Shown here one piece after another: positions 1 to 42,749 of a DNA stretch of 61,378 bases (positions are counted from its first letter, which is position 1; every line of letters begins with the position of its first letter). The DNA is from Catellatospora bangladeshensis. GTDB taxonomy: Bacteria > Actinomycetota > Actinomycetes > Mycobacteriales > Micromonosporaceae. The stretch spans positions 1-61,378 of the forward strand of contig NZ_BONF01000056.1 of NCBI RefSeq assembly GCF_016862575.1. The letters are read 5' to 3'. The notes beneath the pieces are model-generated. The model made no database searches. It worked only from the letters and a program-made list of their open reading frames with translations, and was not told the origin of the DNA. The position numbers and the translations under genes were made by a program.

Positions 1-22
1 AAAGCTAAGAAGGTGCCCTTCC

Positions 23-880
23 TTACTCCCGTACCAGGGCGAGGGCGTGGTCGACGGCGGCGGCGATGTCGGCGACCGGGTAGATGCTGTGCCGCACCAC
101 GCGGTCGGCGTCGACGACCAGGACGGCGCGTTTGTGGCGGAGCTGGTGGGCGCCGCGGAACGTGGGCAGGCGCAGGGCCGCGGTGAGTTCCAGGTCCACG
201 TCGGACAGCAGCGGGAACGGGAGGTCCTCGGCGGCCGCGAAGGCGGCCTGCTCCTCGGGCAGCTGGGTGCTGAGGCCGTACACGGTCGCGCCGGCCTCGG
301 CGAAGGCGGGCCAGGCGTCCCGGAACAAGCGGTTCTCCAGGGTGCAGCCCGCGGTGCCGGGGATGCGGCGCCACTGCTCACCCTTGCCGCCACCGGTCGC
401 CGGGTAGGTGAACAGCACCGTCCAGGCGGTGGGCCCGACCACGTCCAGCGGCTCGCCGCGGGTGCTGGGCAGGAACAGGCCGTCCGGCACCCGGCTGCCG
501 GGCAGGTCACGGGTGCGGGCCGGCTCGGCGCCGTCCGGGCTGAGGGCGGTGAGGGTGCCGTCGCCGAGCACCCAGCGGTCGGCCCAGTCCTGCATGGCGA
601 CCAGCACCGGCAGCAGGCCGTGCCCGGCCGGGGTCAGCACGTACTCGTGGCGCGGCGGCCGGTCGGAGTAGGGCCGCTTCGCCAGGACGCCGTGCTCGAC
701 GAGGTGGCCGAGGCGTTCGGTGAGCACCTTGCGGGAGATGTCCAGCTCTCCGGCCAGCTCGTCGAAGCGGCGGTGGCCGCGGGCGACCTCGCGCAGCACG
801 AGCAGGCTCCACCAGTCGCCCAGGACGGCGGCGGACTGGGCGATGCCGCAGTGCTCGTCCGCCTCCCGTGACTTGATCAT
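23..880 (-). CDS. HxlR-family regulator fused to a peroxiredoxin-like domain
   Basis: The 285-residue protein has an HxlR winged helix at about residues 8-105 (VLGDWWSLLVLREV, then DISRKVLTERL) and a thioredoxin-fold AhpC/TSA-like domain at about 120-285. Cys179 lies in GTAGCTLEN, at the place of the peroxidatic Cys of the PGCT motif in bacterioferritin-comigratory-type peroxiredoxins. No second Cys suggests a resolving partner within the protein. HxlR proteins are typically redox or electrophile sensors, so the fusion may couple a redox-active Cys to DNA binding; that is inference. The ATG at 880 follows GGGAGG. The gene is divergent from an ABC-2 exporter, with two inverted repeats between them, so the exporter is its likely target. 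Confidence 0.85.
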   Translation of the reverse strand: MIKSREADEHCGIAQSAAVLGDWWSLLVLREVARGHRRFDELAGELDISRKVLTERLGHLVEHGVLAKRPYSDRPPRHEYVLTPAGHGLLPVLVAMQDWADRWVLGDGTLTALSPDGAEPARTRDLPGSRVPDGLFLPSTRGEPLDVVGPTAWTVLFTYPATGGGKGEQWRRIPGTAGCTLENRLFRDAWPAFAEAGATVYGLSTQLPEEQAAFAAAEDLPFPLLSDVDLELTAALRLPTFRGAHQLRHKRAVLVVDADRVVRHSIYPVADIAAAVDHALALVRE

Positions 881-1779: not shown

Positions 1780-2792
1780 CCCGCGCGATCGTCACCCACG
1801 ACCTGGTCAAGGTGTACCCCCGGCGCGACCGCCCCTGGTGGCGCCCGGCCGGCAAGCGCCCGCCCGCCGCACCCGCCGTCGACGGGCTCAGCCTGACCAT
1901 CCCCGCCGGGCAGGTCACCGGCCTGCTCGGGCTCAACGGCGCGGGCAAGACCACCACCATCCGCATGCTGTCCACGCTGCTGCGCCCCACCACCGGCAGC
2001 GCCACCGTGGACGGCCTCGACCTGGTCCGCGACGCCCGCGAGATCCGCCGCCGGATCAACATGATCGCGGGCGGCGAGCGCATGGTGTATGCCCGCCTGA
2101 CCGCGCGCGAGAACCTCTGGTACTTCGGGCAGCTCTACGACGTGCCGCGGGCGCGGCTCACGGCGCGTATCGACGAGCTGCTCGCCCTGGTGGGCCTGTC
2201 GCACGCCGCCGACCAGCGGGTCGAGCAGTTCTCCAAGGGCATGCGGCAGCGGCTGTCCATCGCCCGCGGCCTCATCAACGAGCCTTCCTACCTGCTGCTC
2301 GACGAGCCCACCCTCGGCCTGGACGCGCCGATCGCCCGGGACCTGCGCGCGGTCGTCGCCGAGCTGGCCCGCGGCGGCGTCGGCGTGCTGCTGACCTCGC
2401 ACTACCTGGCCGAGGTGGAGCAGCTGTGCGCCGAGGTGCACGTCATCGCGGCCGGGCGGCTGGTCGCCCGGGGCACCCCGGCCGAGCTGACCGCGCTCAC
2501 CGAACGCCAGCACACCGTCGAGATCACCCTCGCCGCCGCCGGGGCCTCCGCCGACCAGGCCGTGCAGGCGCTCGCGGCCCGCACCGGCGCGCAGGTCACC
2601 GCCGACACCGACGAGCAGCTGCGCCCCCGGTACGTGCTGCGCCACCGGCACGACCTCGCCGGGGACCTCGCCACCACCGTGGTCGCGGCGGGCGGCGCGA
2701 TCGTGCGGCTGGAGGTCACCCCGCCCACGCTGGAGGACGCGATCCTGGCGCTCGCCGACGGCGCCCGGCAGCCCGAGGCGGTGGCCGCATGA
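1776..2792 (+). CDS. ABC transporter ATP-binding protein (ABC-2 exporter)
   Basis: A 338-residue nucleotide-binding protein. Walker A is [12 protein letters not shown] at about residue 52, the signature is [10 protein letters not shown], Walker B is [12 protein letters not shown] and the H-loop His is in [11 protein letters not shown]. The C-terminal 80 residues form the extension usual in DrrA-type ATPases. The ATG at 1776 overlaps the stop of the upstream permease, and its own stop overlaps the ATG of the next permease at 2789. It energises the flanking two permeases at the membrane. Residues about 22-36 hold a basic [14 protein letters not shown] insertion before the first beta strand. Confidence 0.92.
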
Positions 2793-3610
2793 GGCACGCC
2801 CTGCGCGTCATCGCCGCCGAGGCGCTCAAGCAGCACCGGCGCAGCTTCGGCCGCCCGCTCGTGGTGGCCTCCATGCTGCTGTGGCCGGTGCTGCAGCTCG
2901 CCGCCACCTACTACACGATGCTGCCGGTGCTGGACACCCCCGGCATCGCGTCGCGGTGGCCGGACGCGGCCCAGCCGGCGCGGCTGCTGGCGTTCCTCGC
3001 GGCGGGCGCGTTCGCGTACCTCTTCTACTTCTCGCTGGTGCAGTCAGCCTGGCACTTCTCGTTCGAGCGCATCAGCGGCACGATCGAGCTGCTGTTCCTG
3101 TCCCCGGCGAGCCGGCTGGCGCTGGTGTTCGCCAACGGCACCGGAGCGCTGGTGCAGAACACCTGGCTGGCCGGGTGCTTCGCGGTCGCCGCCGCGAGCG
3201 CGGGCGGGGCGCTGCACGTCGCACACCCCGGCATGTACGCCGTCGCGGCGCTGGCGCTGGTCGTGCCCGCGATCGTCTGGGGCGCGTTCCTCAACAGCCT
3301 GCTGGTCTTCTCGCGGGACTCCGCGTTCCTGTACACGCTGCTCGACGACCCGCTGTGGTTCGTGTCCGGGGTGCGCCTGCCGCTGTTCGCGATGCCGCTG
3401 GCCATCAAGGCCGTCGGCCTGGCGTTCCCGCTGACCAGCAGCCTCATCGTGCTGCGCGGCGCGCTGCTCGACGCCCAGCCCCTTTCCGCCCTCCTCGAAC
3501 CGCTGGCCCTGCTCACCGGCCTGTGCGCGCTGCTGTTCGCGGCCACGGCCGCGCTGCTCCGCCTCGGCGAGGCCCGCGCCCAGCGCACCGGCTCGATGCA
3601 GCTCTACTGA
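2789..3610 (+). CDS. ABC-2 type transporter permease, second subunit
   Basis: A 273-residue membrane protein with about six hydrophobic segments. The N-terminal basic stretch HRRSFGRP precedes a first transmembrane helix (VVASMLLWPVLQLAATYY). The segment SFERISGTIELLFLSPAS is the ABC-2 motif matching the QREGTLE region of the first permease, so the two permeases are distant paralogues that probably heterodimerise. The start is coupled to the ATPase stop (ATGA). It is the last gene of the exporter operon; a 69-bp palindromic repeat begins 17 bases after the stop and may end transcription. Confidence 0.85.
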   Translation: MRHALRVIAAEALKQHRRSFGRPLVVASMLLWPVLQLAATYYTMLPVLDTPGIASRWPDAAQPARLLAFLAAGAFAYLFYFSLVQSAWHFSFERISGTIELLFLSPASRLALVFANGTGALVQNTWLAGCFAVAAASAGGALHVAHPGMYAVAALALVVPAIVWGAFLNSLLVFSRDSAFLYTLLDDPLWFVSGVRLPLFAMPLAIKAVGLAFPLTSSLIVLRGALLDAQPLSALLEPLALLTGLCALLFAATAALLRLGEARAQRTGSMQLY

Positions 3611-3627
3611 ACCGCCCTCTACCCCGC

Positions 3628-3696
3628 CGATCTTGCGCGGCTTGTGGGTGCGACACGCGCGTATCGGGCAAAAGGGCAACAGTTCGCGCAAGATCG
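3628..3696 (+). repeat. 69-bp intergenic palindromic repeat, family 1 copy A
   Basis: The unit starts CGATCTTGCG and ends CGCAAGATCG, with the shared interior CGACACGCGCGTA and GGGCAAAAGGGCAACAGTTC. Three further copies of the same 69-bp length lie at 6568, 7278 and 9912 (inverted). All are preceded by a pyrimidine run like CCCTCTnCCC. The repeat lies just after the exporter operon. Confidence 0.9.
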
Positions 3697-3723
3697 CCGA
3701 ACTTGTGGTGGGGGTGCGGTTCA

Positions 3724-3787
3724 TGATCCGTTTTTGTGGACACTTACCGTCGCTATGGCAGCGGCAGGCGTCCACAAAAACGGATCA
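3724..3787. repeat. Perfect 18-bp inverted repeat with 28-bp spacer
   Basis: TGATCCGTTTTTGTGGAC at 3724-3741 is exactly inverted at 3770-3787. The spacer is 28 bases. It lies between the convergent exporter operon and the SCO1664-type gene, and like the repeat families here it has GATC at its outer ends. It could be a bidirectional transcription end signal or a single-copy member of the same class of palindromic elements. Confidence 0.85.
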
Positions 3788-3834
3788 TCAGTGAGGCCGG
3801 GCGCCCGGCTGGGGCGCGTCGCCGCGAGGATCGC

Positions 3835-4626
3835 TCAGATGGGCGGCCACGGGATGGCGTGGCGGTCTTCGGGTGGCTTCGGCAGGCGGCCGTCGGTGAC
3901 CAGGTGCTTGATGCGGGTGCCCAGGGCGTCGACCTCGGCGGGAGCGAGCAGCGAGTCGAGCACGCCGGGGTCGAAGTTGCGCAGCGCGGTGGCGATCTCC
4001 GGAGCGACCGCGCGGCCCGCGAAACCCCACAGCACCGTACGCAGCTTGTCGTCGGTGTGGAAGCAGACCCCGTGATCGACGCCGTACACCCGCTCGTCGG
4101 GGGTGGCCAGCACGTGCCCGCCCTTGCGGTCCGCGTTGTTGATCACGGTGTCGAAGGCGGCCAGCCGGGCCAGCCGAGGATCGTCGGCGTGCGCCAGCAG
4201 GTACGGGCGGCCGTCCTCGTCCTCGGCGGCCGCGATCGGCAGCCAGCCCTGCGGCAGCTCGTCGGCGGGCACGAAGTCCACCGGCGGCTCGCTGACGTCG
4301 TCCAGCCACAGCTGGCAGGAGCCGGGGCCGAGCGGCCCGTCCCGCATCACCGTGTACGGCACCAGGTCCCAGCCCAGCGCGTCGCTCACGGCGTACGCGG
4401 CCACCTCACGGGCGGCCAGCGTCCCGTGTGGGAAGTCCCACAGCGGGCGCTCCCCGCGCACGGGTTTGTAAACAGCGCGCACGGTCCGGCCCCCGCTGGA
4501 CAGGATCACCCGCAGCGTGGTGTTCGAGGCCTCGATCAGCCGGCCCTCGATCTCCATCTCGGCGTCGCGGAGCAGCCGGCCGAGTTCGGCCCTGCCGCCG
4601 TCGCCGTCCAGAGGGGTGGTCGACAT
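3835..4626 (-). CDS. SCO1664-family protein (kinase-like fold)
   Basis: A 263-residue cytoplasmic protein. RAVYKPVRGERPLWDFP, DTVINNADRKGGHVL and VYGVDHGVCFH are the conserved blocks of the actinobacterial SCO1664 family, which resembles phosphatidylinositol-kinase or HipA-like folds: a Lys for ATP, NNADRKGGH as catalytic loop and VDHG as metal-binding loop. The biochemical substrate is not established to my knowledge. The gene follows DUF3090 by two bases (TAG then ATG), so the two are co-transcribed on the minus strand, divergent from mshC. This is the gene order seen in many actinobacteria. Confidence 0.9.
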   Translation of the reverse strand: MSTTPLDGDGGRAELGRLLRDAEMEIEGRLIEASNTTLRVILSSGGRTVRAVYKPVRGERPLWDFPHGTLAAREVAAYAVSDALGWDLVPYTVMRDGPLGPGSCQLWLDDVSEPPVDFVPADELPQGWLPIAAAEDEDGRPYLLAHADDPRLARLAAFDTVINNADRKGGHVLATPDERVYGVDHGVCFHTDDKLRTVLWGFAGRAVAPEIATALRNFDPGVLDSLLAPAEVDALGTRIKHLVTDGRLPKPPEDRHAIPWPPI

Positions 4627-4628
4627 CG

Positions 4629-5219
4629 CTACCTGCGGTGATAGCCGTTGTGCCGGGGGCAGAGATGCCCCGCCGGATCCAGCGGCTGCCCGCACAGCGG
4701 GCACGGCGGACGGCCCGCCGCCACCACCCGCTTCGCCCGGTCGATGAACTGCCGCACCTCGGCCGGGGTCAGCCGCACCCGCAGCCGGTCCAGGTCGTCG
4801 GAGATCTCCGGCGTCTCGTCGGCCTCCTCCTCCGGCTCGGCCGGGGGCACGTCGGTCTCCGCGTCGAACTCGGCCTCCTCGGCCGCGATCGCCTCGATGA
4901 TGACCGTGCTCGACTCCACGTCGAAGGCCAGGCCCAGGGTGCCGACGCGGAACTCCTCCTCGACCGGGTTCTCCAGCGGCTCGTTGTCCGCCGGGCCCTC
5001 GGCCGCGACGGGCAGCTCCGCCCCGAACCGCTGGTGCGCCTCGGCGAGCAGCTCCTCGAGCTTCTCCGCCAGCAACGCGACCTGCATCTTCTCCAGTGCC
5101 ACGCTGACCAGGCGGCCGCCGCCGCGAGCCTGCAGATAGAACGTGCGCTCGCCGGGCGGACCCACCGTGCCGGCGACGAACCGCTCGGGCGGTTCGAATG
5201 CGTACACCTGATGGGTCAT
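4629..5219 (-). CDS. DUF3090 family protein with C-terminal zinc-binding motif
   Basis: A 196-residue protein matching DUF3090: an N-terminal beta-rich domain (VYAFEPPERFVAGTVG, FYLQARGG), an acidic stretch at about 105-145, and a C-terminal CPLCGQPLDPAGHLCPRHNG block with Cys and His ligands that probably bind zinc. Function is not established for the family. It heads a two-gene operon with the SCO1664-type gene and is divergent from mshC. The start ATG at 5219 has no Shine-Dalgarno sequence but a TAGGGT box six bases upstream, so the mRNA is probably leaderless. Confidence 0.9.
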   Translation of the reverse strand: MTHQVYAFEPPERFVAGTVGPPGERTFYLQARGGGRLVSVALEKMQVALLAEKLEELLAEAHQRFGAELPVAAEGPADNEPLENPVEEEFRVGTLGLAFDVESSTVIIEAIAAEEAEFDAETDVPPAEPEEEADETPEISDDLDRLRVRLTPAEVRQFIDRAKRVVAAGRPPCPLCGQPLDPAGHLCPRHNGYHRR

Positions 5220-5225
5220 GCCTCG

Positions 5226-5231
5226 ACCCTA
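5226..5231 (-). promoter_or_regulatory. Minus-10 box TAGGGT of the DUF3090 operon
   Basis: On the minus strand TAGGGT ends six bases before the ATG of the DUF3090 gene, the spacing expected when transcription starts at the A of the start codon. Confidence 0.5.
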
Positions 5232-5294
5232 GCGTCACGCCCGCGCCATCGGGTAACCGCTCGAGGTGAGATCCGCTCTCGGCATAAAGCTGGT

Positions 5295-5300
5295 TAGGCT
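5295..5300 (+). promoter_or_regulatory. Minus-10 box TAGGCT of mshC
   Basis: TAGGCT is followed by GGCGCC and the ATG of mshC. No Shine-Dalgarno sequence is present, so a leaderless transcript starting at 5307 is the simplest reading. Confidence 0.5.
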
Positions 5301-5306
5301 GGCGCC

Positions 5307-6548
5307 ATGGAAACGTGGTCCGGACTTGACGTCCCGCGCCTGCCCGGCGCCGGTCAGCCCCTGGCGCTGTTCGACTCGGCCCGCCAGGGCGCCCACCCCA
5401 GCCGCCCGGTGGGCGGGCGCGCGACGATGTACGTCTGCGGCATCACCCCCTATGACGCGACGCACCTCGGACACGCCGCCACGATGATCACGTTCGACCT
5501 GGTCAACCGGCTCTGGCGCGACGCCGGGCACGAGGTCGCCTACGTCCAGAACGTCACCGACATCGACGACCCGCTGCTGGAGCGGGCCGAGCGCGACGGC
5601 GAGGACTGGAAGGTCCTGGCCATGCGCGAGACCGCACTGTTCCGCGAGGACATGGAGGCGCTGCGGATCATCCCGCCGAGCCACTACGTCGGCGCCGTCG
5701 AGTCGATCCCGGTCATCGCCCAGCGGGTCGCCGAGCTGCTCGACAAGGGCGCGGCGTACCGGCTGGAGGACGGCACCGGCGACGTCTACTTCGACATCAC
5801 CGCCGCGCCCCGGTTCGGGTACGAGTCGAACCTGTCCCGCGAGCAGATGCTCGCCTTCTTCGCCGAGCGCGGCGGCGACCCCGACCGGGCCGGCAAGCGC
5901 GACGCCCTCGACCCGCTCCTGTGGCGCGGCCAACGCGACGGCGAGCCGTCCTGGCCCGGCGGCGAGCTGGGCGCGGGCCGGCCCGGCTGGCACATCGAGT
6001 GCACCGTCATCGCCCAGGAGCTGCTCGGCGAGACCATCGACGTGCAGGGCGGCGGCAACGACCTGCTGTTCCCGCACCACGAGTGCTCCGCCGCACACGC
6101 CGAGGTGCTCAGCGGCAAGGCGCCGTTCGCCGCGCACTACGTGCACGCCGGCATGATCGGCCTGGATGGCGAGAAGATGAGCAAGTCCCGCGGCAACCTG
6201 GTCTTCGTGTCCCGGCTGCGCTCCGACAAGGTCGACCCGATGGTGGTACGGCTGGCCCTGCTCGCCGACCACTACCGCGCCGACCGGCAGTGGACCGAGG
6301 AGCTGTTCAAGGCCGCCGAGCACCGCCTCGGCCGCTGGCGCCGGGCCGCCCGCGCCGCCACCGGCCCGTCGGGCGCCGAGCTGCTCGCCGGGGTCCGGGC
6401 CAAGCTCGCCGAGGACCTCGACACCCCCGGCGCCGTGGCCCTCATCGACACCTGGGCCGACGACACCCTCGCCGGCGTCGGCACCGACCGCGACGCCCCC
6501 GCCTTGATGTCCACCACCCTCGACGCATTGCTGGGCCTCAAGCTGTAA
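5307..6548 (+). CDS. mshC: L-cysteine:1D-myo-inositol 2-amino-2-deoxy-alpha-D-glucopyranoside ligase
   Basis: A 413-residue class I tRNA-synthetase-like ligase that joins cysteine to GlcN-Ins using ATP, the penultimate step of mycothiol synthesis in the cytosol. Family marks are [17 protein letters not shown] (the HIGH motif as HLGH, with the zinc Cys in CGITPYD), [27 protein letters not shown] and KMSKS at residues 290-294. It differs from cysteinyl-tRNA synthetase by the short C-terminus and CGITPYD instead of CGPTVYD. The ATG at 5307 is likely leaderless. It is divergent from DUF3090. In relatives PAC2 and metH usually lie near; here accessory genes separate them. Confidence 0.96.
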
Positions 6549-6567
6549 CCCCACCCCTCTCCCGCGC

Positions 6568-6636
6568 CGATCTTGCGTGAACTGTGGGTACGACACGCGC
6601 GTACCGGGCAAAAGGGCAACAGTTCGCGCAAGATCG
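6568..6636 (+). repeat. 69-bp intergenic palindromic repeat, family 1 copy B
   Basis: CGATCTTGCGTGAACTGT at the left is matched by ACAGTTCGCGCAAGATCG at the right (17 of 18 pairs). The interior is nearly identical to copy C. The flank continues as ACGTGATCAAG, and the TGATC in this flank supplies the stop codon of the minus-strand gene that ends at 6643. The left flank starts directly after the mshC stop. Confidence 0.92.
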
Positions 6637-6642
6637 ACGTGA

Positions 6643-7128
6643 TCAAGCCGTGGCGGGCGCGGGTAGACGGCGGGTCAGGTCCGCGATGAGGGTGTCCATC
6701 TGGGCGCGGGTCAGGGAGAGGCCACGGGTGCCGACGTCGCCGAAGTAGGCGGGTGTGGGGTAGCGGCGACCGTCCTTCAGATCCACCCACAGCACCCGCG
6801 GCAACTGCTCGTCCGAGCGCAGCGTGAGCGCTTCGACCTGGTCCAGTTGCACCTGGACGCTGACACCGGCACGGCACAGGTAGAGCGCCGTCTCGTCGGC
6901 GAAGACGCCGAGGGTGAGGGTGCGGTGGAAGCCGCGTGCAAACAACAGCATCACCAACAGGACCGTGACATGGCCCGGCTTGGCGCCGCCCGGCTCGTCG
7001 TCGAGCGCGAACAGGCCGAACACGAACAGGGTGACAGCCGACCAGAAGACCATCAGGTTCACCATCCGCCCCGGCGCGTCGGGGGTGAGGCGGACGGTGC
7101 CTTTGGGGGTGAACAGCGCGACATGCAT
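6643..7128 (-). CDS. Tandem paralogue 1: membrane-anchored protein with a C-terminal domain of unknown function
   Basis: A 161-residue protein not recognised by name. Two hydrophobic segments (about residues 22-40 and 50-66) are followed by a soluble domain with ETALYLCRAG, LDQVEALTLRSDE, VLWVDLKDGRRYPTPAYFGD and TRAQMDTLIADLT. It is paralogous to the genes at 7377-7871 and 8043-8540. The layout, two helices then a beta-rich domain, resembles bacterial PH-like membrane proteins, but that is inference. An in-frame ATG lies upstream at 7155. I chose 7128 because all three copies then start in register, each with ACAATCGCGGCC directly before the ATG. Confidence 0.8.
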   Translation of the reverse strand: MHVALFTPKGTVRLTPDAPGRMVNLMVFWSAVTLFVFGLFALDDEPGGAKPGHVTVLLVMLLFARGFHRTLTLGVFADETALYLCRAGVSVQVQLDQVEALTLRSDEQLPRVLWVDLKDGRRYPTPAYFGDVGTRGLSLTRAQMDTLIADLTRRLPAPATA

Positions 7129-7277
7129 GGCCGCGATTGTGGACCACGGGCGCACGGCCGCGTGCGCCGCCGAAGCGGCGAGCGGCTGCCGTGAGCCGGG
7201 ACGCGGTGATCAGCCGCGGGGCGTCGAGCACGAAGCCACGGCCATGTGCCTCGGCAATCTCCACCCCTCTCCCATGT

Positions 7278-7346
7278 CGATCTTGCGGGAACGGTGGGTA
7301 CGACACGCGCGTACCGGGCAAAAGGGCAACAGTTCACGCAAGATCG
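7278..7346 (+). repeat. 69-bp intergenic palindromic repeat, family 1 copy C
   Basis: It matches copy B except for a few positions, mostly in the left arm (GGGAACGG for GTGAACTG). The flanks are also shared: CACCCCTCTCCC on the left and CGTGATCAAG on the right. It lies between paralogues 1 and 2. Confidence 0.92.
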
Positions 7347-7376
7347 TCGTGATCAAGGGGTGTTGGGCGGGGTCGG

Positions 7377-7871
7377 TCAGGCGGGGTTGGTGGTGGCCGG
7401 GTTGGGGAGGTGGCGTGTCAGGTCGGCGATGAGGGTGTCCATCTGGGTGCGGGTCAGTGCGAGGCCGGTCGCGGTGGCGTCGCCGAGGTAGGCGGGGGTG
7501 GGGTAGCGGCGGCCGTCGGCCAGGTCGACCCACAGCACGCGGGGATGCTTGTCGTCCGACCGCAGCGTGAAGGCCTGGACCTGATCGAGTTCGACCCGGG
7601 TGCAGGCACCTGCGCGGCGGAGGTGGAGCGCCGTCTCGCTGGCGAACACGCCGAGGGTGAGGTGGCGGCGGGAGGTGACCGCCATCCAGAGCATGAGCAA
7701 CAGCATCAGGACGTGGCCCGCCCTGAGTTCGCCTGGTTCGTCGGCGAACGACAGCCCGCCGAACACGAAAATGGTGACGGCCAGCCAGAAGCTCATCAGG
7801 TGCGCCATCCGCCCCGGCGAGTCGGGGGTGAGGCGGCGGGTGCCCTCGGGGGTGAAGAGCGCGAAACGCAT
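7377..7871 (-). CDS. Tandem paralogue 2: membrane-anchored protein of unknown function
   Basis: A 164-residue protein closely related to the gene at 6643. It shares ALFTPEGTRRLTPD at the N-terminus, two hydrophobic segments (about 25-43 and 53-70) and the C-terminal blocks ETALHLRRAG, LDQVQAFTLRSDD, VLWVDLADGRRYPTPAYLGD and TRTQMDTLIADLTRHLP. The ATG at 7871 is preceded on the minus strand by CACAAT and seven bases, a possible minus-10 box for a leaderless mRNA. The closeness to paralogue 1 points to recent tandem duplication. No function is known to me; a membrane-surface sensor or scaffold is conceivable. Confidence 0.82.
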   Translation of the reverse strand: MRFALFTPEGTRRLTPDSPGRMAHLMSFWLAVTIFVFGGLSFADEPGELRAGHVLMLLLMLWMAVTSRRHLTLGVFASETALHLRRAGACTRVELDQVQAFTLRSDDKHPRVLWVDLADGRRYPTPAYLGDATATGLALTRTQMDTLIADLTRHLPNPATTNPA

Positions 7872-8042
7872 GGCCGCGATTGTGGACCATGGCCGCTCGG
7901 CCGTGTGTCCCGCAGCGCGGCTGTCTGGGTTCGTGAGCTGAAGCCGTGCGTTCAGACGTGGTCAAGGCGGTGGGCACACCGTGGTGGCCGCTGCGGCGTG
8001 CACCGCCGGTCGGCTGGTGCGCCGGTCGGGCGGTGCGGGAGG

Positions 8043-8540
8043 TCAGGGCAGCGGGAGCGAGGGGACCCTGGTGTGCTGGGGCAGGCGGAGGGAGAGCATG
8101 GCGATGAGGGTGCTCATCTGGTCACGGGAGAGGGGGAGCGCGAGGGGATCGCCGGTGGTACCGCCCAGTCGGGCAGGGGAAAGGTAGCGGCTGCCGTCGA
8201 TCAGATCGACCCAGAGCGTCTGGTGGGGCCCGCCGACGGGCCGCAGTGTGAGGGCCGCGACCTGCTCGAACGCGATCGTCCTGAGCCGGCGGCCGTCGTG
8301 CATCAGCAGGGCCGTGTCCGTGACGAACACGCCGACCCAGAGCGTGCGGCGGAAGCCGCCCAGCAGTACGGGCAGCGAGAGCAGCGCGCAGGCCATCGCG
8401 AAAGACCCGTTCGCGGCTGCCGGGACGGCGTACACCGTCATGGCCGCGACCCCCCAGAAGGCGGCCAGCGTCCAAGCCCGCTCCGGCGGGTGCGGGGTGA
8501 GGCGGCGGCTGTTCCTGGAAGTGAAGAGCGCGAGACCCAT
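8043..8540 (-). CDS. Tandem paralogue 3: divergent membrane-anchored protein
   Basis: A 165-residue protein, the most divergent of the three. It keeps GLALFTSRNSRRLTP, two hydrophobic segments (about 27-45 and 50-66), TDTALLMHDGRR, EQVAALTLRPVG, TLWVDLIDGSRYLSPARLGG and SRDQMSTLIAML. The upstream ACAATCGCGGCC-ATG leader is also kept, so leader and gene were duplicated together. An older duplication than the paralogue 1/2 pair is the simplest reading. Function unknown. Confidence 0.8.
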   Translation of the reverse strand: MGLALFTSRNSRRLTPHPPERAWTLAAFWGVAAMTVYAVPAAANGSFAMACALLSLPVLLGGFRRTLWVGVFVTDTALLMHDGRRLRTIAFEQVAALTLRPVGGPHQTLWVDLIDGSRYLSPARLGGTTGDPLALPLSRDQMSTLIAMLSLRLPQHTRVPSLPLP

Positions 8541-8613
8541 GGCCGCGATTGTTGCGTACGGACGCTCGGCGGTGTGTCCGCCGAGGAGACAGCCAGCAGG
8601 TGGTATGCCGTCG

Positions 8614-8928
8614 TCAGGCGCGCGGGCGGGGCTGGGGGCGCGGGCGCACCGCGACGCGGGACGGCCGCTGCGGCGGGGTCTGCCGCACTCGCGCCGGCCG
8701 GGCTGGTGCCTCCGACTGGCGGCGCAGCGTCAGCGCCACGTGCCCGAGCCGGCCCGCCAGGGCGAACACGCCCAGCGTCAGCGCGCCGAGCAGCAGCACA
8801 CCGGTGCTCGGGACGCCGTCGGCGATGCCGACGACGAGCACGCCGAGCAGCGCGAGTCCGATCACGAGCACGACGAGTGCGCCGAGGAGGGCCACGAGCG
8901 CCTGTGGGGAGTGCGGGCGACGGGTCAT
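8614..8928 (-). CDS. Small two-helix membrane protein with basic tail
   Basis: A 104-residue protein with two long hydrophobic stretches (about residues 10-34 and 40-62, ALVALLGALVVLVIG and GVLLLGALTLGVF) and a Pro/Arg-rich C-terminus (PRPQPRPRA). An upstream in-frame start at 8982 exists, but the ATG at 8928 is preceded by AAGGA at a good distance and is preferred. It lies 73 bases downstream of paralogue 3 on the same strand in transcript order GntR, this gene, paralogues. No family recognised. Confidence 0.6.
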   Translation of the reverse strand: MTRRPHSPQALVALLGALVVLVIGLALLGVLVVGIADGVPSTGVLLLGALTLGVFALAGRLGHVALTLRRQSEAPARPARVRQTPPQRPSRVAVRPRPQPRPRA

Positions 8929-8997
8929 ACGACCATCCTTGCGGCGAAGGCGCGGGTGCGCAGGCGAAAAGGTGTCGGGCACCCGACAAACCGCACA

Positions 8998-9831
8998 TTA
9001 GCCCAGGACGAGCCCAGGATCGGGATCTCCGTCCAGGTCGGCGTCCGGGCGTGGCGTGGGCACCCGGTACTCCTCCGTCAGCGTCGTCATCGGTCCAGGC
9101 CAGGTCGCTTGCGCCACCTCGATCACCTTGTGGTCGGCGTCGTACGCGACGTGCAGCAGGTGCAGCACCGGGGTGTCCGGCCGGATCTGCAGCACCTCGG
9201 CCTCCTCGCGGGTGGGCAGCCGCGCGGTGATGGTGTCGGTGGCGGTCACGTAGCGGCGCCCGGTGACCTCCTCGACCTCCTGATACAGCGGCCGGCCGAA
9301 CGACTCGTAGCGCTCCAGCGAGGTGCCCGCGGTGTCCTGCGGCCGCAGCCACGAGGCGCCCACCTCGACCGCCGCGTCCTGGGTGCGTACCAGATGGCGG
9401 CGCACCACCAGCAGGGTCGAGTCGGGCACGCCGAACGCGTCGGCGACCTCGGCCGGGGGCGTGGCCCGGGTAACCTCGATGAGCTGCTGCCGGTATCGCG
9501 CCGCCAGGTCGGCGTGGTAGCCGCGCTGGGTGCCGTAACGCCCCCGGGCCAGCCGGTTGAGCCGCCGCCGGGTGCCGCGCACGTAGGTGCCCGACCCCGG
9601 TTTGGTGATCAGCAGTCCCTCGACCCGGAGCTGGTCGATGGTGCGCTGCACGGTCTGCTTGGCGACGCCGTACATCTGCGCCAGCGCGGGGATGGACGGC
9701 AGCTGCTCACCGGCAGCCCAGTCCCCCCGCCGGATCTTCGCGCGCAGCTGCGCGGCGATCTGCCGGTGCGGATGCTCGGCCGCGCCCGGATTCACCCCGC
9801 CGATGCCCATCTCGGTCATGAACCAGATCAT
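8998..9831 (-). CDS. GntR-family regulator with UTRA ligand-binding domain
   Basis: About 277 residues. The winged helix (QIAAQLRAKIRRGDWAAGEQLPSI, YGVAKQTVQRTIDQL, LITKPGSGTYV) spans about 20-85 and the UTRA domain about 110-265 (PLYQEVEEVTGRRYVTATD, LQIRPDTPVLHLLHVAYD). HutC/UTRA regulators sense small organic ligands. Starts at 9840 (TTG), 9831, 9819 and 9810 are possible and none has a clear Shine-Dalgarno; 9831 is a compromise. Three CTAG-containing half-sites lie 22-44 bases upstream and are the likely autoregulatory operator. It may also control the small membrane proteins downstream. Confidence 0.85.
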   Translation of the reverse strand: MIWFMTEMGIGGVNPGAAEHPHRQIAAQLRAKIRRGDWAAGEQLPSIPALAQMYGVAKQTVQRTIDQLRVEGLLITKPGSGTYVRGTRRRLNRLARGRYGTQRGYHADLAARYRQQLIEVTRATPPAEVADAFGVPDSTLLVVRRHLVRTQDAAVEVGASWLRPQDTAGTSLERYESFGRPLYQEVEEVTGRRYVTATDTITARLPTREEAEVLQIRPDTPVLHLLHVAYDADHKVIEVAQATWPGPMTTLTEEYRVPTPRPDADLDGDPDPGLVLG

Positions 9832-9850
9832 GCCGCACAAATGTCCGAAT

Positions 9851-9876
9851 ACCTAGCGACCTAGGAAGCCCTAGCC
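9851..9876. promoter_or_regulatory. CTAG-rich operator upstream of the GntR gene
   Basis: Three CTAG tetramers start at 9853, 9861 and 9871; ACCTAGCGACCTAGG includes a near-dyad. CTAG is rare in actinobacterial DNA, so three in 22 bases next to a GntR gene suggest a regulator site. Confidence 0.5.
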
Positions 9877-9911
9877 ACTGTGTCGCCCCGCGCAACGCGC
9901 AAAGATCACGT

Positions 9912-9980
9912 CGATCTTGCGCGAAGTGTTAGGGATTTGACCGGTTTACGCGTGTCGTACCCACAGTTCACGCAAGATCG
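9912..9980 (-). repeat. 69-bp intergenic palindromic repeat, family 1 copy D, inverted
   Basis: Read on the minus strand it has the same ends, arms and GGGTACGACACGCG block as the other copies. The inner right part differs (TAAACCGGTCAAATCCCTAAC in place of the GGGCAAAAGGGCAAC block), yet the length is again 69 bases. The flanks are the shared CTCTCTCCCGCG and ACGTGATC. Confidence 0.88.
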
Positions 9981-10020
9981 ACGCGGGAGAGAGGGCGGGG
10001 GCAGGGCTGGGCGGGGCGGG

Positions 10021-10887
10021 TTACCAGGTGCCGTGGGTGGGGCCGGGGGAGCCGCCGCGGCGGCGGAGGTACTTTTCGAACTCCACGGCGATTTCGTCGC
10101 CGGAGAGGGGTTTGGCGGCGTCGCCGGCTCGTTCCTCCAGGTCGCGGAGGTATTCGGCTAGTTCGGCGTCCTGGGCGGCGGCGGCGCGGACGCGGTCCTC
10201 CCACTCGGCGGATTCCTGGGCCAGGTCGAGCATGGGGACGGGGAGGTCGAGGACCTCCTCGATGCGGTGGAGTAGGGCCAGGGTGGCCTTGGGGCAGGGC
10301 GGGTTGTTGGCGTAGTGGGGGACGTGGACCCAGAAGGACATGGCGTCGAGTTCGGCGCGGGAGGCGGTGTCCTGGAGGACGCCGACGATGCCGGTGGGGC
10401 CCTCGTAGCGGGTGGGGGTGAGTTTGACCTTCTCCTGGCCGGTCTGCTTGCCGGTGATGGTGCCGCTGATGGGCAGGGGGCGGCTGTAGGGGACGTCGGC
10501 CAGGAGGGCGCCCAGGAGCACCAGGTTCTCGATGGCGAGGCTGTGGCAGATCTCCAGGATCTCGCCGCAGAAGGTGCGCCAGCGCAGGCTGGGCTCGATG
10601 CCGCGGATCAGGACGACGTCGTGCTTGGCGCCGGGTGGCGAGGCGACCATGAACTTGGTGCTCGGCCACTCGATGCGGCGGGTGTCGTCCACCAGCGTGA
10701 TCAGCGGGCGGTTGACCTGGAAGTCGTAGTAGTCCTCGGGGTCGATCGAGGCGACCTCGCGCGCGTTCCACACCTGCTCCAGGTGCTCCACGACGGCGGT
10801 CGACGCGTCAGCGGCGTCGTTCCACCCTTCGAAGGCGGCGATGGCGACAGGGGAACGCAGGACAGGAAGGCCGTCGAACTCGGTCAC
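10021..10887 (-). CDS. PAC2 family protein (proteasome-assembly-chaperone-like)
   Basis: A 288-residue cytoplasmic protein of the PAC2 family, with VAIAAFEGWNDAADAST near the N-terminus, LIRGIEPSLRW, LVLLGALLADVPYSRP, MSFWVHVPHYANNPPCPKATLALL and a charged C-terminal helix. PAC2 proteins resemble a eukaryotic 20S proteasome assembly chaperone; the actinobacterial role is uncertain. Longer starts at 10923 or 10974 are open, but the GTG at 10887 has TAGGCT seven bases upstream, a leaderless arrangement also seen for mshC and metH, and it matches the family N-terminus. Divergent from metH. Confidence 0.9.
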   Translation of the reverse strand: MTEFDGLPVLRSPVAIAAFEGWNDAADASTAVVEHLEQVWNAREVASIDPEDYYDFQVNRPLITLVDDTRRIEWPSTKFMVASPPGAKHDVVLIRGIEPSLRWRTFCGEILEICHSLAIENLVLLGALLADVPYSRPLPISGTITGKQTGQEKVKLTPTRYEGPTGIVGVLQDTASRAELDAMSFWVHVPHYANNPPCPKATLALLHRIEEVLDLPVPMLDLAQESAEWEDRVRAAAAQDAELAEYLRDLEERAGDAAKPLSGDEIAVEFEKYLRRRGGSPGPTHGTW

Positions 10888-41327: not shown

Positions 41328-42659
41328 GTGTCTGATGTGGTTGGTGGCGTGGTGGTGCAGGCGTATCGGTTCGCCCTCGACCCGACCCCGGCCCAGAACC
41401 GTGACCTGCATCGTCACGCCGGAGCCGGGCGGTTCGCGTTCAACTGGGCTCTGGCCGCGGTGCGTGCCAACCTCGACCAGCGTGCCGCCGAACGCACCTA
41501 CGGCCTGGACGGTGAGCAGCTGACGCCCGCGCTGGGCTGGACCCTGCCCTCGCTGCGCCGCGCCTGGAACACGGCCAAGCCGCAGGTCGCACCGTGGTGG
41601 GGGCAGTGCTCGAAGGAAGCCTTCAACACCGGCCTCGACGGTTTGGCGCGGGCACTGGGCAACTGGTCGGCGTCCCGGTCTGGCCGCCGTGCTGGTCCCA
41701 GAGTGGGGTTCCCGCGGTTCCGGTCCCGGCGGCGGGTGACGCCGTCGGTGCGGTTTACCACCGGCACCATCCGCGTCGAGGACACCCGCCACCATGTGAC
41801 CCTGCCCAGGCTGGGCCGCATCCGCACCCACGAGTCGACCCGGAAACTGGCCCGCCGTCTGCACGCGGGCACCGCCCGGATCATGTCGGCGACCGTCCGC
41901 CACACCGCTGGGCGATGGCACGTGTCGTTCACCGTGCAGGTCACTCGTACCGTGCGCACTCCCGCCCGCCCACACGCCACCGTCGGTGTGGATGTGGGCA
42001 TCGCGAACCTGGCAGTGCTGTCGACCGGGCAGCTCGTGCCCAACCCCAGCCACCTGACCCGGGCACAGGGGCGGCTGCGCACAGCTGCCCGGACCCTGTC
42101 CCGACGCCAGGGCCCCGACCGGCGCACCGGCCAACAGCCCTCCCGGCGCTGGCAGCAGGCCAAGACCCGCCTGGCCCGCGCGCACGCCCGTGTGGCGAAC
42201 CTGCGCGCCGACGGCCTGCACAAACTCAGCACCACCCTCGCCGTGACCTACGGCACGATCGTGGTCGAGGACCTCAATGTCGCCGGGATGATCCGCAACC
42301 GACGCTTGGCCCGGTACATCGCCGACGTAGGGTGGGCCACCCTGCGCCGCCAACTGGAATACAAGACCACCTGGAACGGCAGCCGCCTCGTCGTGGCCGA
42401 CCGGTGGTTTGCCTCCTCGAAAACCTGTTCTTCCTGCGGCGTCGTGAGACCCAAACTGCGCCTGCGGGTACGGATCTACACCTGCGAGCAATGCGGCCTC
42501 AGCTTGGACCGTGATTTGAACGCGGCGATCAACCTGCAGCAGTACGTCGCCCGGAGCGGCCGGGAGACGCAAAACGGCCGTGGAGCCGACCGTGAGACCA
42601 CCCTCGTGGTGGCAGGTGGCAGTGAAGCGACCACCCTGCGCCACCATCGCGGTGGTTAA
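41328..42659 (+). CDS. tnpB: RNA-guided endonuclease TnpB (IS605/IS607 OrfB)
   Basis: 443 residues. The N-terminal part has YRFALDPTPAQNRDLHRHAGAGRFAFNWAL. RuvC I is VGVDVGIANLAVL (Asp222), RuvC II is TIVVEDLNVAGM (Glu314), the zinc ribbon is CSSCG...CEQCG and RuvC III is LDRDLNAAINLQ (Asp394/Asp396). All catalytic positions are present, so the nuclease is probably active. The C-terminal tail after 400 is hydrophilic. Start GTG 41328, six bases after TAGCCT, hence leaderless. The guide RNA of TnpB elements normally spans the 3' end of the gene and the right end, here about 42500-42750. Confidence 0.93.
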   Translation: MSDVVGGVVVQAYRFALDPTPAQNRDLHRHAGAGRFAFNWALAAVRANLDQRAAERTYGLDGEQLTPALGWTLPSLRRAWNTAKPQVAPWWGQCSKEAFNTGLDGLARALGNWSASRSGRRAGPRVGFPRFRSRRRVTPSVRFTTGTIRVEDTRHHVTLPRLGRIRTHESTRKLARRLHAGTARIMSATVRHTAGRWHVSFTVQVTRTVRTPARPHATVGVDVGIANLAVLSTGQLVPNPSHLTRAQGRLRTAARTLSRRQGPDRRTGQQPSRRWQQAKTRLARAHARVANLRADGLHKLSTTLAVTYGTIVVEDLNVAGMIRNRRLARYIADVGWATLRRQLEYKTTWNGSRLVVADRWFASSKTCSSCGVVRPKLRLRVRIYTCEQCGLSLDRDLNAAINLQQYVARSGRETQNGRGADRETTLVVAGGSEATTLRHHRGG

Positions 42660-42669
42660 GACGGGGACC

Positions 42670-42689
42670 GTCGGCCGGCAACGGCCGAC
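42670..42689 (+). other. Hairpin at the right end of the TnpB element
   Basis: GTCGGCCG-GCAA-CGGCCGAC, a perfect 8-bp stem 10 bases after tnpB. This is where the omega-RNA scaffold and right end would lie; the first bases beyond the element would act as guide. Confidence 0.55.
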
Positions 42690-42749
42690 TGCAAAACGAG
42701 TGCTCACAAACGACCACTCATCTGCAGCGGTGATTCGCGAAAGGGACGG

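What the first reader, a model, noticed from the sequence alone, without database searches (positions are those of the whole stretch)
3628..9980. A 69-bp palindromic intergenic repeat in four equal-length copies
Copies at 3628, 6568, 7278 and (inverted) 9912 are each exactly 69 bases, with ends CGATCTTGCG and CGCAAGATCG and a shared interior. Flanks are also conserved (a CCCTCTCCC run on one side, CGTGATC on the other). Copy D has replaced part of its interior yet kept the length, and the arms pair in every copy. Constant length with arm pairing suggests selection on RNA or DNA structure or a non-autonomous mobile palindrome of the REP/MITE type.
Basis: seen in the sequence. Interest (0 to 1): 0.75.

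Follow-up and report, generated by a model that had tools for sequence, protein, structure and literature searches.

The report
Repeated 69-base hairpins at gene ends
A soil bacterium carries over a hundred near-identical-length 69-base hairpins, mostly placed just after genes, where they probably form the folded tail of the messenger RNA; close relatives often carry a different repeated hairpin at the same gene end, as if such tails were interchangeable parts.

Summary
The four copies belong to a genome-wide family: 79 places with both exact ends, 116 by an oriented half-pattern. In a scan of one genome per species (84,980) the exact 29-base half-pattern was found only in Catellatospora. The outer stem pairs in 93.8% of cells, with a covariation score above all 500 shuffles. 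G·U pairs outnumber A·C mismatches 109 to 19 on one strand (120 to 39 with pair 0/70), and that strand is the sense strand of the gene just upstream (24 against 3 tandem cases). At orthologous gene ends 7 of 14 sites hold the element in 4-6 of 11 genomes. Genomes without it often have another hairpin there (23 of 43 gaps), several from families that are themselves repeated. No REP transposase was found in the genome and no interrupted copy. Best reading: a non-autonomous repeat kept as an mRNA 3'-end hairpin (U-less terminator or exonuclease block). The role in transcription is inferred and the spreading mechanism is unknown. It is a new variant of the palindromic-repeat kind.

The parts
3628..3696 (+). 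copy A of the 69-nt hairpin, 17 nt after the stop of the + gene 2789-3610; convergent gene pair
6568..6636 (+). copy B, 19 nt after the stop of the + gene 5307-6548; present at the orthologous place in 6 of 11 Catellatospora genomes, own included
7278..7346 (+). copy C, between - strand genes 6643-7155 and 7377-7871, opposite to the usual orientation; linked to copy B by a local duplication that includes the neighbour gene
9912..9980 (-). copy D, on the sense strand of the - gene 10021-10887, 40 nt after its stop; shared with G051 only; the nine other genomes have other hairpins here (scores 11 to 29)
6568..6585 (+). 5' arm (18 nt) of the outer stem in copy B; its first 9-10 nt hardly vary between copies
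6619..6636 (+). 3' arm (18 nt) of the outer stem in copy B
3723..3788 (.). a second, unrelated GATC-ended hairpin (66 nt) in the same intergenic gap as copy A; G051 lacks it there, and G109 has a similar one at another gene end (site 11) where other genomes have the 69-nt element

Best explanation
A genus-level family of 69-nt elements that are transcribed as the last hairpin of an mRNA. SHOWN by sequence: high copy number, fixed length, a covarying outer stem, one-strand wobble bias, position just after stop codons on the sense strand, presence at orthologous gene ends in several species, and other (in part repeated) hairpin families at those ends in species that lack it. INFERRED: the RNA hairpin stops RNA polymerase and/or shields the 3' end from exonucleases, in the manner of U-less stem-loop 3' ends of GC-rich actinobacteria. 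It spreads as a non-autonomous repeat, and copies that land after a gene are kept because they serve as its 3' end. Lineage-specific bases at many sites at once suggest that copies are overwritten by one another (conversion or re-insertion). The enzyme is unknown.
For: Stem: 93.8% of 1725 cells paired; cells with double changes 21 against 9.9 +- 2.6 shuffled; covariation score 0.136 against 0.109 +- 0.004 shuffled (0 of 500 reach it) and at most 0.060 when slid. Compensatory changes within single orthologous sites: pair 11/59 at sites 1, 4, 7 and 8 and 14/56 at site 7. G·U 109 against A·C 19 outside pair 0/70. Own-genome contexts of 50 copies: convergent 18, sense tandem 24, antisense tandem 3 (p 5e-5), divergent 3, in ORF 2; 39 of the 42 with a sense gene upstream start within 60 nt of its stop. 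G000 against G051 at 12 shared sites: outermost ten positions of each arm 3 of 240 changed; among 50 syntenic copies one change in positions 2-9 and 61-68; other intergenic DNA 7.0%. Seven of 14 sites hold the element in 4-6 of 11 genomes. 23 of 43 orthologous gaps without it hold another hairpin of score 13 or more, 13 of these 23, by my reading, from families counted as repeated.
Against: No transcript data. No U-tract follows the stem, so it is not a textbook intrinsic terminator. The outermost arm hardly varies and recurs in other genera with other interiors, which a mere terminator would not need. The inner half of the arms is not conserved in sequence: 15 of 192 positions (7.8%) changed between G000 and G051, as much as other intergenic DNA. 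The number of pairs with double changes (7) is reached by 35 of 500 shuffles, and the number of further pair types by 12 of 500. Pair 0/70 runs against the wobble bias (11 G·U, 20 A·C), and the bias could in part be inherited from a founder copy. Oriented RNA folds are only slightly more stable than the reverse strand (-43.8 against -42.1 kcal/mol on average, lower in 69 of 111). The interior keeps motifs without a consistent inner fold. 20 of 43 gaps without the element show no hairpin of score 13. Outside the own genome the orientation bias is weaker (31 against 13) and orthologous copies are not independent; the related palindromes of G061 show less 3'-end preference (tandem 7, convergent 5, divergent 2, in ORF 1) and often lie over 100 nt from genes.
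Confidence: 0.6

Rival explanations
1. A non-autonomous mobile palindrome (MITE/REP-like) with no host role: a transposase acting in trans moves it, and its 3'-end bias only reflects where insertions do no harm.
For: High copy number; patchy distribution in the genus, 0 in 3 of 11 genomes; two of 16 own-genome copies in four syntenic regions absent from the nearest relative, one of them with an alignable shorter site that contains GATC; lineage-specific bases.
Against: No Y1 transposase in the own genome; among 154 distinct copies above threshold none is interrupted and one is cut, by a locus end, with two lone arms beside full copies; outer arms change less than other intergenic DNA; presence at orthologous sites in up to 6 genomes; sense-strand bias. 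No target duplication could be defined.
Confidence: 0.2
2. A DNA-level binding site: a dimeric protein (nucleoid, condensin or recombinase type) reads the conserved CGATCTTGCG arms set 49 bp apart.
For: Outer arms nearly invariant; the same ends with other interiors and 68-70 nt total length in two other genera, g39 and g4; fixed length.
Against: One-strand G·U bias, compensatory change in the inner half of the stem and orientation with the upstream gene are not expected of a symmetric DNA site. No bound protein could be tested.
Confidence: 0.12
3. Fixed-length functional small RNAs or processed 3'-UTR RNAs, with the conserved interior motifs (GACACG, CGGGCA) binding an RNA-binding protein.
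For: Conserved interior motifs inside a fixed-length stem; sense-strand placement.
Against: No Rfam match in 3500-10100; interior positions 32-37 differ at 20% between two close relatives. Many of the aligned loci were fetched by a pattern that contains GACACG, which inflates that motif's conservation.
Confidence: 0.08

Closest known systems
REP / BIME palindromic repeats with RAYT transposases (GTAG and CGTC classes; PMC3733652, abstract and passages seen)
   Same: many dispersed extragenic palindromes with lineage-specific families
   Different: 69 nt instead of 20-40; no end tag shown; no Y1 transposase in the own genome; present at orthologous sites in several species
U-less stem-loop 3' ends of GC-rich actinobacteria (I-shaped terminators or stem-loop-protected Rho ends), as mapped in Streptomyces clavuligerus (PMC8269248, passages seen)
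   Same: strong stem at the transcript end without a U-run; longer stems at ends used from both strands
   Different: that paper describes a class of ends, not one repeated sequence family, in the passages I saw; here one family recurs at about a hundred gene ends, without transcript data
ERIC, RIME and similar large palindromic intergenic repeats (recalled)
   Same: palindromes of the order of 100 nt in transcribed intergenic DNA, proposed to affect mRNA stability
   Different: no sequence relation tested; those lineages are proteobacterial (recalled)
DNA-uptake-sequence terminators (mentioned in a passage of PMC2267715; the organisms Neisseria and Haemophilus are recalled)
   Same: a repeated motif in inverted pairs forms gene-end hairpins
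   Different: single unpaired arms are rare here: 2 lone against 227 inside full copies in the loci held

Membership tests
REP with RAYT | high-copy extragenic palindrome | tested here: met
   79 strict, 116 oriented matches; 4 of 151 placed copies inside ORFs
REP with RAYT | unit of about 20-40 bp with a GTAG or CGTC tag at one end | tested here: not met
   69-nt units; the base next to the core is variable and lies in a partly paired GCGN/NCGY extension; CGTC arises at the left end only where that base is T
REP with RAYT | Y1 (PF01797) transposase gene in the genome | tested here: not met
   0 in the own genome; 6 of 15 genomes searched have one, without agreement with element content
MITE | terminal inverted repeats and high copy number | tested here: met
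   18-nt arms; copy number as above
MITE | target-site duplication | tested here: inconclusive
   one alignable polymorphic site; about 100 nt present in G000 and absent in G051, which keeps GATC there; no clean duplication
MITE | autonomous element sharing the ends | tested here: inconclusive
   no interrupted or longer copy among 154 distinct copies in the fetched loci; the whole genome was searched only by fixed-span patterns and one 69-nt query
intrinsic (Rho-independent) terminator | stable stem-loop shortly after a stop codon on the sense strand | tested here: met
   42 of 48 intergenic own-genome copies have a sense gene upstream, 39 of them within 60 nt
intrinsic (Rho-independent) terminator | U-tract directly after the stem | tested here: not met
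   consensus after the core is NCGYGATCWTGG
intrinsic (Rho-independent) terminator | transcripts end there | not testable with these tools
   no RNA data available
known Rfam RNA family | covariance model match | tested here: not met
   no match at E up to 10 in 3500-10100

The most novel reading that the evidence does not exclude
Gene 3' ends in Micromonosporaceae are sockets for interchangeable hairpin cassettes. Several unrelated families of roughly 57-90-nt palindromes (four counted as repeats within this genus, some with GATC near both ends) compete for the same gene-end positions and replace one another between species, while copies of one family are homogenised within a lineage by an undescribed conversion or homing process.
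Probability: 0.35. Interest if true: 0.8.

Novelty: new variant of a known kind. Interest (0 to 1): 0.6.

Why it matters
If right, one repeat family supplies the 3' ends of about a hundred genes, and unrelated families take over the same positions in sister species. That gives a natural series of replacements in which the long-standing question whether REP-like repeats are parasites or working parts of mRNAs can be tested gene by gene, and it points to an unknown mechanism that spreads or converts short palindromes without a REP transposase.

Tried and rejected
REP/RAYT: rejected. Rfam: no match. Phage or plasmid carriage: no match. Copy-specific extension of the stem into the C-rich and G-rich flanks: rejected, observed pairing score 4.96 against 4.87 +- 0.12 when flanks are dealt between copies. 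A conserved inner hairpin GCCC/GGGC: present in part of the copies only. A clean GATC target duplication: suggested by GATC in the shorter site of G051, but the difference between the genomes is about 100 nt, larger than the core, so not shown. GATC near both ends as a rule for all families: rejected. Leaving out this family and its look-alikes it holds for 9 of 20 long hairpins in own+G051 and 17 of 22 in G061, but 2 of 23 in congeners without the family; with look-alikes kept, 3 of 6 in g4 and 2 of 5 in G100. Word enrichment (7-mers over whole stretches, not intergenic only): dominated by codon patterns, not used.

Limits: the gene calls are from my own codon-score caller. Many copies were fetched by their ends or by GACACG, so conservation is best read from the syntenic copies. 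Four syntenic regions of the own genome were compared, one chosen as the window and three for holding several copies. Absence at a site was not checked where the flanking anchors did not map (marked). No species tree was computed. That flanks are unalignable at site B is by eye.

Literature searches: (listings). None of the titles listed is about these repeats; one search listed two Micromonospora taxonomy papers, which I did not open. Four papers were seen as passages only (PMC2267715, PMC12306157, PMC8269248, PMC3733652).
Full report
OBSERVATION. The four copies are present as described: 3628-3696, 6568-6636, 7278-7346 on + and 9912-9980 on -, each 69 nt with the stated ends. The oriented half-pattern is found 7 times in the window against 0.59 expected. 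B and C share more than the repeat: 112-nt stretches around it are 89% alike and the genes next to them are 77% alike over 300 nt, so this pair is linked by a local duplication of repeat plus gene. A and D are not part of it.

FAMILY SIZE AND RANGE. In the own genome (G000, 8.83 Mb, 115 contigs) the pattern with both exact 10-base ends and a free spacer of 40-60 gives 79 places, 0 for the reversed control; of the 50 places listed 49 are 69 nt and one is 70. An oriented 29-base half-pattern with up to two mismatches gives 116. Among 300 genomes of the family, drawn evenly from a larger group, 32 have a match: seven of the eleven in the genus are rich (29 to 79 places), G100 has 2 (one of them a 68-nt member, the other 60 nt and unlike), three have none. 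One genome of another genus (G061, g39) has 166 places with the same ends and a different interior; the 13 listed are 68 nt. Genomes of genus g4 have 0 to 4 places with the same ends and another stem, 69-70 nt in those listed; two genomes of g44 have one each (66 and 70 nt). A scan of one genome for each of 84,980 species with the exact half-pattern returned 46 stretches, all Catellatospora. Contig lengths identify G109 as C. coxensis, G125 as C. sichuanensis, G087 as C. vulcania and G071 as C. paridis. No match in phages or plasmids and none in Rfam.

STRUCTURE. From the loci then held, 114 distinct copies were collected; 111 are 69 nt. On an alignment of 75 of the copies (131 full-length ones were available) a 23-pair structure is formed in 93.8% of 1725 cells; 7 pairs show changes on both sides (shuffles 4.7, reached by 35 of 500), 21 cells do (shuffles 9.9, none of 500), and the covariation score is 0.136 against 0.109 +- 0.004 in shuffles and at most 0.060 in slid versions. 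Nine outer pairs do not vary in that set, which was partly chosen by its ends; among 50 syntenic copies there is one change in positions 2-9 and 61-68. The inner half of the stem varies, partly with compensation. G·U pairs exceed A·C mismatches 109 to 19 outside pair 0/70, 120 to 39 with it, so the strand written GTGGGT..CGACACG is the one that folds best; the mean fold energies differ little. The interior keeps GTGGG, GACACG and CGGGCA but no single inner fold.

PLACE. With a simple codon-score gene caller, 50 own-genome copies fall as follows, read on the folding strand: convergent gap 18, gap after a sense gene and before a sense gene 24, the reverse 3, divergent 3, inside an ORF 2; the tandem asymmetry has p 5e-5. 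Gaps of 75 nt or more in the same loci: tandem 66, convergent 31, divergent 27. 39 of the 42 copies with a sense gene upstream start within 60 nt of its stop codon, median 26.5 to 30 nt by class. Other Catellatospora genomes: 48, 31, 13, 7 and 2 of 101, tandem asymmetry p 0.0096, with orthologous copies not independent. In 13 stretches of G061 the related palindromes are less clearly at 3' ends (tandem 7, convergent 5, divergent 2, in ORF 1). The left flank is C-rich, the right flank G-rich, and no U-tract follows.

EVOLUTION. In three syntenic regions compared over 11 genomes of the genus, 14 sites were found. Seven are occupied in 4 to 6 genomes, five in G000 and G051 only, one in two other genomes, and one (copy C) in G000 only. 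A fourth region adds two sites shared by G000 and G051 and one present only in G000, where G051 has an alignable shorter site. So 14 of 16 G000 copies are shared with G051. Between these two genomes, leaving out gaps and badly aligned stretches, divergence is 3.8% in the arms, 5.3% in the interior, 20.2% in loop positions 32-37, 17.2% in the 30-nt flanks, 7.0% in other intergenic DNA and 4.1% in coding DNA. Within the arms the outermost ten positions of each side differ at 3 of 240, the inner eight at 15 of 192. Compensatory changes occur within single orthologous sites. Bases that mark a lineage recur at many sites: position 70 is A in 38 of 51 copies in G000 but T in 50 of 52 in the named species, and position 55 is C in 21 of 51 in G000 but G in 50 of 52 there. 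This is concerted evolution or repeated re-insertion; I cannot tell which.

INTERCHANGE. At site D, G000 and G051 carry this family, while the nine other genomes carry hairpins of score 11 to 29 instead; four recognisable unrelated families account for most of them. Over 43 orthologous gaps without the element, 23 hold a hairpin of score 13 or more; no gap's mean over 20 single-base shuffles reached 13, though single shuffles did in three gaps. By my reading 13 of the 23 belong to three families that were counted genome-wide: CAAGTTGCCGGGCA 147 forward matches in G118, 104 in G133, 43 in G016, 6 or fewer in each other genome searched; TGCAGTTTCGGGGAAA 293 in G016, about 200 in G118 and G133, 95 in G000; CGCAACTCTTNAAGAGTYGCG 229 in G100, 174 in G087, 145 in G129, 5 in G000, 0 in G016, G118 and G133. 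The counts allow two mismatches and count arms; the third pattern is itself nearly palindromic, so its elements number about half. The families of the other 10 hairpins were not counted. Strong hairpins in the three congeners lacking the 69-nt family also sit after genes: 19 convergent, 9 tandem, 1 divergent, 1 in an ORF, against 18, 27 and 23 gaps.

READING. The best-supported account is an mRNA 3'-end hairpin that has multiplied as a non-autonomous repeat. Termination or exonuclease protection is inferred from place, strand and structure, and from published 3'-end maps of a Streptomyces, in which most highly structured ends lack a U-tract (353 of 535; PMC8269248, passages). Against a plain terminator stands the near-invariant outer arm, shared across genera with different interiors, which suggests that something reads the sequence itself. 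The spreading agent is unknown: no Y1 transposase in the own genome, no longer copy, one match among 154 cut by a locus end, and two lone arms beside full copies.

NOVELTY. The kind (dispersed intergenic palindromes) is known. The new features are fixed length with a variable interior, presence at orthologous gene ends, sense-strand bias without a U-tract, and unrelated hairpins, some repeated, at the same gene ends in sister species. The searches named in Tried and rejected listed no paper about these repeats.

Noticed in passing
window, about 41350-42693: A stretch that reads like a TnpB-type gene (by eye, not translated or searched) directly followed by an Rfam RF03015 Transposase-2 RNA at 42624-42693, 55.5 bits; possibly its guide RNA.
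   Followed up: partly
window 3723-3788: A second 66-nt GATC-ended hairpin (ATGATCCGTTTTTGTGGAC) next to copy A; G051 lacks it there, and G109 has a similar hairpin at another gene end in place of the 69-nt element.
   Followed up: partly
window 6643-7155, 7377-7871, 8043-8540: Three tandem paralogous small genes on the - strand; two of them lie next to copies of the repeat that share the duplication.
   Followed up: partly
L080-L086, L167-L172 (G061): Another genus carries at least four palindrome families in 260 kb (CGATCTTGCGCGAATG; CCAAGATCCCGTTTGGATCAGG; CCTTGATCATGTAACG; TGCATGATCGTTTACG); 32 of 38 long hairpins have GATC near both ends.
   Followed up: partly
L183 11588-11656 (G109:C1:110728-110796, C. 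coxensis): A 69-nt copy with the family's ends and a GACACGCCCG motif but a replaced inner stem (GAATGACCCC/GGGGCCATTC), like a hybrid with the G061 type.
   Followed up: no
L021 around 1475 and L028 around 1586: Two lone arms of the repeat stand beside full copies, the only ones outside full copies in the Catellatospora loci held.
   Followed up: partly
window 1-30: Half of a further intergenic hairpin repeat (AAGAAGGTGCCCTTCCTT) at the window edge; the same motif recurs in gaps of other genomes.
   Followed up: no
30-nt flanks of shared copies, G000 against G051: The DNA just outside the hairpins diverges at 17%, more than twice other intergenic DNA (7%), as if the sites were mutation or exchange hot spots or simply unconstrained.
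   Followed up: partly
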